DNA from: Geothrix sp.
GTDB taxonomy: Bacteria > Acidobacteriota > Holophagae > Holophagales > Holophagaceae
DNA: 64,000 nucleotides
Assembly (NCBI GenBank): GCA_030681515.1
Contig: JAUXSE010000017.1
Coordinates: 62,001-126,000, forward strand
Direction of reading: 5' to 3'
In this document: positions 1,013 through 58,562 of the stretch, one piece after another
Numbering within the stretch: the first letter of the stretch is position 1
Layout of the letters: every line of letters starts with the position of its first letter
The notes under the pieces: model-generated
Databases searched by the model: none
The model's input: the letters and a program-made list of their open reading frames with translations, nothing else
What the model was told of the DNA's origin: nothing
Position numbers and translations under genes: made by a program

Positions 1013-2037
1013 GCGGGGCCGCCACGCAGGTCCAGGGCGACCTCGACCGGCTTCTGCCGATGCTGGACACCGCGCTGGCCCGGTCTTTCCGGAACGGCGA
1101 AGCCGCCCGCCTGGGAGAGGCCGCGAGATACAGCCTGGAGGCTGGCGGCAAGCGGGTGCGCCCCGTACTCTGCCTGTTGGCCTGCGAGGCCGTGGGAGGT
1201 TCGGCGGAGATGGCCCTTCCCGGGGCCCTCGCCCTGGAGTACGTCCACACCTATTCGCTCATCCACGACGACCTTCCCGCCATGGACGACGACGACCTCC
1301 GCCGGGGGCGGCCCACGAACCACAAGGTCTTCGGCGAAGGCCACGCCATCCTGGCTGGTGATGCCCTGCTGACCGAAGCCTTCGGCGTATTGGCCTCCGC
1401 GGACCTGGAGCCCGCGAGGAGGGCCGAGGCGCTGACGCTGCTGGCGGAAGGCGCCGGCTGGCGCGGCATGGCCGGCGGACAGGCTCTGGACCTGGAGGCC
1501 GAAGCACGAGCGAAGGCCCACCGGCTCGCGAAGCGAGACGGCCCGAAGGGCGAGGCCCAGGGAGGCTCCGCCTCCACGAGAGCAGCGAGTGGGAAGGCGC
1601 TCCAAGAGGAGCGCCTGTCAGGCGGAGGGCCGAGTGAGGGTGAGCAGCTCGACGCCTACGACCTGGACCACCTCCGCCTCATCCACCGGCTGAAGACCGG
1701 CGCGCTGCTGCGCGCCTCCCTGGAGATCGGCGCCGTGCTGGGCGGCGCGGCCTCGGCGGAACGGGCCGCCCTCCGGGCCTACGGCGAGGCCATCGGCCTG
1801 GCCTTCCAGATCCAGGACGATATCCTCGACGCCACCGCCACGGACGCGGATCTGGGCAAGCGGGCCGGAAAGGACGCGGGCAGGGGTAAGATCACCTACC
1901 CTTCCCTTCTGGGCCTGGAAGGCGCCCGCAGGGCCCTGGACGAAGCCACCGAGACCGCCATATGCCAACTAGCCTCCCTATCCAACCGGAATTCCTTGGC
2001 AGCCTGGGCGCGATACCTGGCCCTGCGGGCCAAGTAG
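1009..2037 (+). CDS. ispA: Polyprenyl (farnesyl) diphosphate synthase with in-frame insert
   Basis: Trans-type prenyltransferase, 342 residues, condensing IPP with allylic diphosphates to make farnesyl (or geranylgeranyl) diphosphate for the pathway fed by dxs downstream. The first aspartate-rich motif is DDLPAMDDDDLRRG (residues about 86-99) and the second is QDDILDATATDADLGK (about 268-283); GKRVRP and HRLKTGALLRAS are also present. It starts with GTG, overlapping xseB. Between GGQALDLEAE and the LIHRLKTG motif lie roughly 45 extra residues rich in Arg, Lys, Gly and Ser, where relatives such as E. coli IspA have only a short loop. All catalytic motifs are intact, so the enzyme is probably active. 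Confidence 0.93.
   Translation: MSGAATQVQGDLDRLLPMLDTALARSFRNGEAARLGEAARYSLEAGGKRVRPVLCLLACEAVGGSAEMALPGALALEYVHTYSLIHDDLPAMDDDDLRRGRPTNHKVFGEGHAILAGDALLTEAFGVLASADLEPARRAEALTLLAEGAGWRGMAGGQALDLEAEARAKAHRLAKRDGPKGEAQGGSASTRAASGKALQEERLSGGGPSEGEQLDAYDLDHLRLIHRLKTGALLRASLEIGAVLGGAASAERAALRAYGEAIGLAFQIQDDILDATATDADLGKRAGKDAGRGKITYPSLLGLEGARRALDEATETAICQLASLSNRNSLAAWARYLALRAK
1507..1652 (+). repeat. Palindrome-rich in-frame insertion inside ispA
   Basis: The DNA coding for the extra ispA loop is packed with inverted repeats. AGGCGCTCC (1595-1603) and GGAGCGCCT (1608-1616) form a perfect 9-bp stem around AAGA; GGAGGC and GCCTCC flank TCC near 1561-1575; CTCGC and GCGAG flank GAA near 1524-1536. 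The insert keeps the frame and contains no stop. This is what a short palindromic element inserted into a coding loop looks like. The edges are judged from the protein and are approximate. Its vocabulary (GGAGGCTCCG, GCGAGG) is shared with the large element at 15.5 kb, but a common family is not proven. Confidence 0.6.
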
Positions 2038-15484: not shown

Positions 15485-15920
15485 CTTAGAGTACCTAACG
15501 AAACCCCCACAGGGCCGCGCGAGGGCCGCCGGGCGAGCGAGGCGAGGAACGCGAGGCAAAGCGTAGCGGGTACTACGCGCGACGGAGGCTCCGGCTCTGC
15601 GAGCCGGAGGCGAGCAGGAGCGGCGCGGTGCGCCGCGATAGCTGGAGGTGACGCTGCATCGCCCTCCGTCTGACGCCACGCTGCGCGTGGCTCCCGCTCG
15701 CAGACTCGCGGAGCCGGAGCCTCCCCGCCGCCCCTCGCCCGGAGGGATGAAGCCAGGCAGGCGCCCCGCGGCGTCAGGTCCCTTGAACAACGAACCACGT
15801 TGCCCTGCGGGCCCTTCCTTCTCGGTATCGCCTCCGGCGATACGCGAGACAAACTGATATCTGCGGTGCATCCTGCCTGGCTTCATCGCGGCCCCGTCGG
15901 GGTTTTGTTAGGCACTCTTA
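15485..15920. repeat. 436-bp multibranched inverted-repeat element (MITE-like or structured RNA)
   Basis: No credible gene lies here. Imperfect terminal inverted repeats of about 34 bp (15485-15518 and 15887-15920) read CTTAGAGTACCTAAC against CTTA-related GTTAGGCACTCTTA ends. Inside are two long stems: 15584-15603 with 15705-15724 (19 of 20 bp) and 15746-15761 with 15872-15887 (16 of 16). Each encloses smaller perfect hairpins: 15620-15626/15630-15636, 15676-15681/15685-15690 and 15825-15832/15836-15843; another hairpin is at 15561-15566/15573-15578. The whole can fold as a cloverleaf. It may be a non-autonomous mobile element or a transcribed structured RNA. Confidence 0.75.
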
Positions 15921-55800: not shown

Positions 55801-56956
55801 TGCAGGTGTGAGTGCAGAACAAATTCCAGCGGCTTTCTTTCTGCATAGCGCTGCGGATCTGGAGGCACAGCGCCTGCACCTGGACCCAGCCGACTTCACC
55901 CTAATGAACCCCAACACCCTCACCTGCCCCGTGTTTCGCACGGAAGAGGACTACGCCCTGACCCGCCGCATCTACCAGCGCGTGCCCGTGCTGCGCCGCT
56001 TGGATCCGCTGGAGGATCCCTGGGGAATCCGATACCAGCGCCTGTTCGATATGACCAACGACAGCGGCCTCTTCCGCACCGTGGCGGATCTAGAGCGCTT
56101 GGGCGCCTGGCGAGAGGCTGGGCCCATGCCCATCTGGGACAGCCCGGAAGGCCGGTTCGTTCCGCTGCTCGAAGGCAAGATGGTGCAGGCCTTCGATCCC
56201 AGGGCCGCAGGCGTGCGGATCAATCCGGAGAACATTCATCGTCCGGCGATTGCAGAGGCGACGCGGCTTGAACAATGGCAGAATCCTGGGTTCTTCCCAT
56301 CGCCTCAATCCTGGGTGCCAGAGGTTGAGGTCCAATCTCGGTTGGGCCCCGCCTCTCGACCTGCCTTCATCGGGTTCAAGAGCGTCACCAGTCCGACTAA
56401 TTTGCGGACGATGATCGCCTCATGGCTCCCTGTCACAGGTGTTGGCAACAGCATGCCCATCCTGTTGAGCGATCAACCATGGATGAGCCAGCTCCTTCTC
56501 CTGGCGAACCTGAATGCACTGGTCTACGACTACGTTCTTCGTCAGAAGATCGGCGGTCAGAACCTCAATTTCTTCTACCTTGAACAGCAACCCACGCTGC
56601 CACCCGCCTTCTACGACCAGCTTCATCACGACCACCGCTGGCTGGATCTCATCGCGCCCAGGGCCCTGGAGCTGAGCTACACCTGCCACGCCCTGAAGCC
56701 CCTGGCCGAGGCCTGCGGTCACGCGGGCCCGCCCTTTGCCTGGGACCCGGCCCGCCGCCGCGTGCTGCGCGCCCAGCTCGACGCCCTGTTCTTCCTGGCC
56801 TACGGCTTCGACCAGCCCGGCGATGAAGCCGCCGTGGCCCATATGCTCGGCACCTTCCCCATCCTGAACCAGGATGATCCGGGCTACGCCGCGCTGGTCC
56901 AAGGCCACCTCCGCGCCTACCGCGCCGGGCGCATGGATGCGCGGGTAGAGGGGTGA
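52814..56956 (+). CDS. Type IIG-like restriction-methyltransferase fusion protein
   Basis: 1380 residues. The N-terminal region (about 60-190) has a nuclease pattern: 'REASTATGRPDYVLFED' and VLEAKYWERP, the D...ExK of a PD-(D/E)XK fold. The adenine-N6 methyltransferase core follows: motif I 'DPAMGSGHFLVAAL' near residue 540 and motif IV NPPW near 843, with an Eco57I-like arrangement. The C-terminal third should recognise the target; DNA for residues about 1080-1280 is lower in GC than the rest, as expected of a swapped recognition domain. One chain could both cut unmodified and methylate own DNA. A BREX-type PglX role is less likely because no other BREX genes are here. Confidence 0.85.
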   Translation: MTPAQPSPMNLTLVPAYTNQALFSDHHLEVRLPGSPQWQRWTPAELEAIHGRLQASLAAYARRRQPKNEEDTRQWLDDVLGVLGYAYHREASTATGRPDYVLFEDTATLASAAQALRSGQTQAYYPQALTVLEAKYWERPLQTRDTEGHRENPVLQINRYLDDAAIHSGNRIQWAVLTNGRHWRLYWRGAPSRALTHYEVDLPDLLAHPHVEEGDFARFRYFLLFFGREAFQRDSGGKTLLDRIREASETFATEVGASLEEAIYGPSGAFLRLAEGLFLDATQHGAKTLEESPLQDLRALEASTLVLLYRLLFLLYAEDRNLLPLGHPEYQAASLSALRDQATLAVDQGKVPTSRRAAAWGHLEGLFDLVHRGDPGMGLPYYNGGLFDPERHPLLQQLKVPDAQLLPALDALSRVVMEGQRRRVDFRDLGVRQLGSLYEGLLEYRLNLAGDGLSISQDSLVRRTTASYYTHESLVARLVADTLTPIMDDRRQAADKALHAWAATFTTPAKGEAQRLKQEKAREEHEAQVVALLLDLKVLDPAMGSGHFLVAALDHLTDGLMVALSHHQEDPDLAPWLAQHPIFRTLEAQRTAIARSLVDQGLSTEAVDAILPHLDDLRLLKRLVMKRCLFGVDLNPMAVELAKLSLWLDSFTLGAPLSFLDHHLKAGNSLVGSSMAEYTELRRDAQGATIGAGLFAEAHAFDADEVLDELHHLLALSDATRDQVRQSQVLYQTVERQLAFTRVALDVVASRDLSNQPRRLSRGRSGVVVDDAAVLLADDGALKRLYQLIHEGREQVGRLPEALRLTALNVLEDRQRHAFFHWDLAFPEVFLSKGPRGFDAVLTNPPWERIKLQENEFFGQHRPELARLQTAAQRRAAIQRLRSEDPPLWDTYESARTVREALLNYAHQSGRYPLLGRGDTNLYALMVERGLSLLKPEGRAGFVVPSGLATDFGNAPFFGQMVRDRRLAFLYDFENRRGLFPGVHRSFKFSLVGFTGAGVSAEQIPAAFFLHSAADLEAQRLHLDPADFTLMNPNTLTCPVFRTEEDYALTRRIYQRVPVLRRLDPLEDPWGIRYQRLFDMTNDSGLFRTVADLERLGAWREAGPMPIWDSPEGRFVPLLEGKMVQAFDPRAAGVRINPENIHRPAIAEATRLEQWQNPGFFPSPQSWVPEVEVQSRLGPASRPAFIGFKSVTSPTNLRTMIASWLPVTGVGNSMPILLSDQPWMSQLLLLANLNALVYDYVLRQKIGGQNLNFFYLEQQPTLPPAFYDQLHHDHRWLDLIAPRALELSYTCHALKPLAEACGHAGPPFAWDPARRRVLRAQLDALFFLAYGFDQPGDEAAVAHMLGTFPILNQDDPGYAALVQGHLRAYRAGRMDARVEG

Positions 56957-58346: not shown

Positions 58347-58562
58347 TGGGACCCGGCCCGCCGTCGCATGCTGCGCGCCCAGCTCGACGCCCTGTTCTTC
58401 CTGGCCTACGGCTTCGACCAGCCCGCCGACGAAGCCGCCGTGGCCCATATGCTCGGTACCTTCCCCATCCTGCACCAGGACGATCCGGGCTACGCCGCGC
58501 TGGTCCAAGGCCACCTCCGCGCCTACCGCGCCGGGCGCATGGACGCGCAGGTAGAGGGGTAG
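58347..58562 (+). pseudogene. Displaced second copy of the restriction gene 3' end
   Basis: This 216-bp stretch keeps an intact reading frame for the last 71 residues of the 1380-residue protein ('LRAQLDALFFLAYGFDQP', ending in a stop) at about 95% identity. Many of the differences are silent third-position changes, so it evolved as a working gene end, not as junk, before being cut off. Its upstream portion is missing. It follows the DUF1828-like gene by 36 bases. Confidence 0.88.

What the first reader, a model, noticed from the sequence alone, without database searches (positions are those of the whole stretch)
15485..15920. Large cloverleaf-like non-coding element beside rpsT
Seen: 436 bp with 34-bp imperfect terminal inverted repeats, two nested long stems (19/20 and 16/16 bp) and four smaller perfect hairpins, all mutually compatible in one multibranched fold. 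No gene fits. Inference: a non-autonomous mobile element of an unfamiliar type, or a large structured RNA. It shares short words with the ispA insert, so it may be the full-length form of that family.
Basis: partly seen in the sequence, partly recalled or inferred. Interest (0 to 1): 0.85.

Follow-up and report, generated by a model that had tools for sequence, protein, structure and literature searches.

The report
Palindromic mobile element family in Geothrix
A 429-bp folded, gene-less DNA element beside the ribosomal gene rpsT is one copy of a Geothrix-only family of small jumping elements that appear to borrow the transposase of an IS5-type insertion sequence; unusually, their two ends change from species to species but stay complementary to each other.

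Summary
The element is window 15489-15917, flanked by a 3-bp TTA duplication, and folds far better than shuffles (z -10 and -12). It is one member of a multi-copy family confined to Geothrix (Acidobacteriota). Canonical copies are about 275 bp; the window copy carries two further palindromic repeats nested inside it (about 15585-15723 and 15820-15862). The rpsT-tkt site is empty in the 27 other genomes examined. Copies insert at TNA with 3-bp duplications, begin GAG and end CTC. An 869-bp IS5-family element with the same ends and a TTA duplication exists in a congener, with relics in four more species. I read the element as a new type II MITE of an IS1031-like IS. Its unusual feature is covariation: arms and inner stems are about 95% Watson-Crick paired in 70 aligned copies, with many double substitutions. 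Arms stay matched in place at a shared insertion upstream of rlmH in five species, even where the core has been lost. Non-pairing intermediates show no strand bias in the arms, which fits palindrome correction by template switching better than a conserved RNA, but selection is not excluded. The proposed link to the ispA insert is only the nested tip repeat.

The parts
15486..15488 (.). left copy of the 3-bp target-site duplication (TTA)
   Evidence: family-wide TNA duplication
15489..15917 (+). the element: type II MITE, long-tip form, 429 bp
   Evidence: empty site in 27 congeners
15489..15507 (+). left terminal arm GAGTACCTAACGAAACCCC
15899..15917 (-). right terminal arm (reverse complement GAGTGCCTAACAAAACCCC)
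   Evidence: matches the IS right end
15585..15723 (.). expanded tip: nested palindromic repeat module (GGAGGCTCC...GGAGCCTCC) in place of the usual 22-nt tip; relatives occur alone elsewhere in the genome
15746..15761 (+). 5' strand of inner stem GATGAAGCCAGGCAGG
   Evidence: covaries in other copies
15872..15887 (+). 3' strand of the inner stem
15780..15818 (+). most conserved core, with hairpin CAACG-AACCA-CGTTG (CGATG/CATCG in a subfamily)
15820..15862 (+). extra hairpin CTCGGTATCGCCTCCGGCGATACGCGAGAC: REP-like repeat family, nested
15918..15920 (.). right copy of the target-site duplication (TTA)

Best explanation
The element is a non-autonomous transposon (type II MITE) of a Geothrix-specific family. 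It is moved in trans by an IS5-family (IS1031-like) transposase that recognises the GAG...CTAACAAAACC ends and inserts at TNA, duplicating 3 bp. Most genomes have lost the IS and keep MITE copies. Because the element is palindromic, its arms probably extrude or mispair during replication; point differences between the arms are then copied from one arm to the other by template switching, so the arms drift in sequence but stay complementary. Shown: mobility signature, empty sites, genus restriction, matching IS ends, paired drift in place. Inferred: that this IS mobilises it, and that template switching rather than selection keeps the arms matched (the mobile-element part I hold at about 0.93, template switching over selection at about 0.65).
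For: Genus restriction: 25 of 25 congeners and 0 of 16 other-genus genomes; exact core only in Geothrix/Holophagaceae/Acidobacteria-labelled records; none in viral, plasmid or phage sets. The rpsT-tkt site is empty in 27 of 28 genomes. TSD: 26 of 91 copies have identical flanking 3-mers against 11 by shuffling, mostly TAA/TAA and TTA/TTA. IS: 869 bp, TIRs GAACGGCTAACAAAACCC and GAGTGCCTAACAA, TTA duplication, transposase NF033580 at 242.7 bits, cut-off 110. Its relic in G048 ends exactly GAGTGCCTAACAAAAC next to TTA; G018, G010 and G057 also hold relics. IS1031 group: TNA target, 3-bp repeat (PMC12016507). Covariation: arms 94.6% Watson-Crick against 26-35% when slid and 73% when shuffled; about 104 double against 66 single changes on a tree. 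In place: rlmH locus, five species, at least five paired changes and one unpaired; L482 lost the core but has perfect arms. Precedent for template switching: PMC8794818.
Against: The IS was found essentially complete in one genome only, and its transposase needs a frameshift; no transposition was observed. The MITE shares only its ends with the IS. The subfamily amplified in G018 (25 forward and 25 reverse ends) has different arms (AGGAGCTGGAACG...), for which no IS was found. Many copies (65 of 91) lack identical flanking 3-mers. At rlmH the element diverges about half as fast as fourfold sites (0.11-0.22 against 0.30-0.47), and inner stems show a G-T excess over A-C (37:18); both leave room for selection on structure.
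Confidence: 0.75

Rival explanations
1. A structured RNA (or cis-regulatory hairpin) selected at each locus: the transcript folds, and compensatory changes are kept by selection.
For: Strong covariation in all stems; conserved core; slower divergence than fourfold sites at rlmH; G-T over A-C in inner stems 37:18; in cbpA-hspR the right arm carries a Shine-Dalgarno GGGGAGG and the hspR start codon, and the stem is kept; tandem genes 44 against 20 in one orientation.
Against: No clear strand bias in the arms (G-T 28, A-C 20 events). Gene context is mixed, including divergent and convergent pairs. The core is lost in L482 while the arms persist. No detected core in 7 of 31 Geothrix genomes. No Rfam match. 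The orientation bias and the G-T bias point to opposite strands.
Confidence: 0.18
2. A single-stranded hairpin substrate (integron attC-like or IS200/IS605/REP-like), with pairing needed for recombination.
For: Ends read CCTAAC...GTTAGG in many copies; palindromic; sequence varies while pairing is kept.
Against: The AAC/GTT triplets are not conserved. TNA target duplications indicate a DDE transposase. Y1 transposase was found in only 3 of 31 genomes and not in G000 or G018. A matching DDE IS exists.
Confidence: 0.03
3. The element inserted into loops of pre-existing palindromes (for example terminators), so the arms are host sequence.
For: The arms differ among loci while staying paired; copies often abut stop codons.
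Against: Empty rpsT-tkt and rlmH sites hold no such palindrome, and a search for core-less consensus arms with a 3-33-nt loop found none in 6 genomes.
Confidence: 0.02

Closest known systems
Type II prokaryotic MITEs (e.g. Chunjie of Geobacter uraniireducens, QMITE1/2 of Coxiella; PMC10969869)
   Same: 50-500 bp, terminal inverted repeats, short target duplication, intergenic, stable folds, size variants down to hairpins, similarity to an IS limited to the ends
   Different: GC-rich; arms differ between copies yet stay complementary; hosts nested palindromic repeats and, in one case, an IS110-family insertion
IS5 family, IS1031 group insertion sequences
   Same: ends starting GAG, TNA target, 3-bp duplication, two overlapping transposase frames in the matching IS
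   Different: no transposase in the element; only about 16-18 terminal bases shared
ERIC/IRU and other large palindromic intergenic repeats (from general knowledge)
   Same: genus-level palindromic repeats in intergenic DNA, often near gene ends
   Different: no family comparison was run; here a target duplication and a matching IS are visible
Template-switch-maintained hairpins (PMC8794818)
   Same: paired multi-base changes without observed intermediates
   Different: described for RNA genes; here in a bacterial transposable element, and inferred only

Membership tests
Prokaryotic MITE (type II) | short, no transposase gene | tested here: met
   429 bp; canonical about 275 bp; no credible ORF
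Prokaryotic MITE (type II) | terminal inverted repeats | tested here: met
Prokaryotic MITE (type II) | target-site duplication | tested here: met
   TTA here; 26 of 91 against 11 expected in the family
Prokaryotic MITE (type II) | multiple copies and empty orthologous sites | tested here: met
Prokaryotic MITE (type II) | mobilised in trans by an IS with the same ends | tested here: inconclusive
   matching IS and relics found; mobilisation itself not testable here
IS5 family, IS1031 group (as source of the transposase) | TNA target with 3-bp duplication | tested here: met
   group rule from PMC12016507
IS5 family, IS1031 group (as source of the transposase) | IS5-family transposase in the autonomous element | tested here: met
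   NF033580 242.7 bits, PF13340, PF01609; assignment to the IS1031 subgroup rests on TNA and GAG, not on a transposase tree
Integron attC site | conserved RYYYAAC/GTTRRRY boxes | tested here: not met
   AAC/GTT changes in many copies
REP / REPIN | associated RAYT (Y1) transposase | tested here: not met
   Y1 in 3 of 31 Geothrix genomes, absent from G000 and G018
Known RNA family (Rfam 15) | covariance-model match | tested here: not met
   no match at gathering score or E up to 5

The most novel reading that the evidence does not exclude
A bacterial transposon whose terminal repeats evolve as a coupled pair in place, because it is a hot spot of arm-to-arm template switching or because its hairpin has been taken up as a regulatory element at several genes (for example hspR and rlmH).
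Probability: 0.45. Interest if true: 0.7.

Novelty: new member of a known kind. Interest (0 to 1): 0.5.

Why it matters
The family gives many natural replicates, in one genus, of long palindromes evolving at shared sites with empty-site controls. That makes the question of whether compensatory changes in stems come from selection or from template-switch mutation directly testable in bacteria, and warns that covariation alone does not prove a functional RNA. It also shows how such elements end up at stop codons and inside ribosome-binding sites.

Tried and rejected
A coding gene: no credible ORF. Known RNA: no Rfam match at either threshold. attC site: the ends look alike, but the AAC/GTT boxes vary. 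RAYT/Y1 (IS200/IS605-like): too rare in the genus. The 1.9-kb form in G018 (C16:72159-74036), first thought to be the autonomous element, is the MITE interrupted by an IS110-family transposase (PF01548, PF02371). The multi-copy DUF4096 IS of G019 has unrelated ends CTAGGG...CCCTAG. Pre-existing palindromes as targets: contradicted by the empty sites.

Full report
What is there. Window 15489-15917 is a palindromic, gene-less element flanked by TTA. It lies between rpsT (minus strand) and tkt (plus strand).

It is a repeat family. The element matches dozens of places in its own genome, all 25 same-genus genomes searched (its own included), and none of 16 genomes of other genera. The exact 29-base core occurs, in a collection of 84,980 species genomes, only in records named Geothrix, Holophagaceae or Acidobacteria. 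With a 97-base core as query, 24 of 31 Geothrix genomes have it and 7 do not, so it is dispensable. Canonical copies are about 275 bp. The window copy differs by an enlarged tip (15585-15723) and an extra hairpin (15820-15862). Both sequences occur elsewhere in the genome as separate repeats, and long-tip forms occur in several species.

It moves. The rpsT-tkt interval is about 176-198 bp and empty in 27 genomes, against 623 bp here. At rlmH an older insertion is shared by five of the 30 genomes whose sites were read and absent from nearly all others. Identical 3-mers flank 26 of 91 copies against 11 by shuffling, nearly all TAA/TAA or TTA/TTA; no other duplication length shows a signal. Deleted forms down to about 51 bp consist of the two arms and a short loop.

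What moves it. DUF4096 and Y1 searches gave no partner in the copy-rich genomes. Checking the loci of DDE transposases for matching ends found one in G043: 869 bp, ends GAACGGCTAACAAAACCC and GAGTGCCTAACAA, flanked by TTA, two overlapping transposase frames. The joined protein is IS5 family (NF033580, 242.7 bits). Relics occur in G010, G018, G048 and G057; that of G048 ends exactly like the MITE. TNA and a 3-bp repeat are the rule for the IS1031 group (PMC12016507). I call the element a type II MITE (definition in PMC10969869). Mobilisation itself is inferred.

The odd part. In 70 aligned canonical copies the 19 arm pairs are 94.6% Watson-Crick, against 26-35% when the partner is slid and 73% when shuffled. 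Sixteen of 19 arm pairs, and 16 of 41 inner pairs, have two or more Watson-Crick types. On a tree, double changes (about 104 in the arms) outnumber single ones (about 66). Intermediates in the arms are nearly balanced (G-T 28, A-C 20). At rlmH the orthologous copies show at least five paired changes and one unpaired change in the arms. L482 has lost the second half of the body but keeps perfect arms. L096/L283 show the same pattern. An RNA selected on one strand should favour G-T; simple decay should give mostly single changes. Template-switch correction of palindromes predicts paired drift with few intermediates, and has been proposed for RNA hairpins (PMC8794818). Against a purely mutational account, the element diverges more slowly than fourfold sites and inner stems lean to G-T (37:18). 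I give template switching the larger weight and keep selection as a live rival.

Neighbourhood. With a crude codon-usage gene finder, many copies begin within 0-10 bp of a stop codon, as expected for a TNA-target element in a gene-dense genome. Divergent, tandem and convergent pairs are all used. In two species the arm carries the hspR ribosome-binding site and start codon.

Limits. Copy sampling is uneven and includes draft MAGs; the same genome can appear under two names, and duplicates were removed only by identical arms and flanks. The tree of a repeat family is rough, so event counts are approximate. The structure was derived from the same alignment on which pairs were counted, which favours it over slid versions. 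No expression or transposition data were available.

Noticed in passing
window 1515-1645: ispA (1009-2037) carries an in-frame insert of about 43 codons (AHRLAKRDGPKGEAQGGSASTRAASGKALQEERLSGGGPSEGEQL) that contains the same small palindromic repeat as the element's tip: a repeat inserted in a coding sequence and apparently tolerated.
   Followed up: partly
L167 and L255 (Geothrix fuzhouensis and G008), cbpA-hspR junction: The right arm of a copy supplies the Shine-Dalgarno GGGGAGG and ATG of hspR, paired with the left arm; it could act as a translational switch in a heat-shock operon. Gene names are by inspection of the sequence.
   Followed up: partly
L419 (G018:C16:72159-74036): An IS110-family element is inserted in a copy of the MITE, in keeping with the known taste of IS110-type elements for palindromic repeats.
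   Followed up: partly
G018 (25 forward and 25 reverse ends): An amplified subfamily has different, about 30-bp arms (AGGAGCTGGAACGGAATAA...); no IS with such ends was found.
   Followed up: partly
L021:1100-1420 and L024-L027: The tip module belongs to a separate Geothrix repeat family of roughly 60-bp palindromic units (CACCTCCGCCTAAYGCACGCTGCGCGTGCTCC...), in places tandem and mosaic.
   Followed up: partly
L020:1400-1640: A REP-like hairpin TCTCGGTATCGCCTGCGGCGATACGCGAGAC occurs in a roughly 107-bp tandem arrangement.
   Followed up: no
window 56741-56954 and 58347-58560: A 214-bp direct repeat, 96% identical, 1606 bp apart.
   Followed up: no
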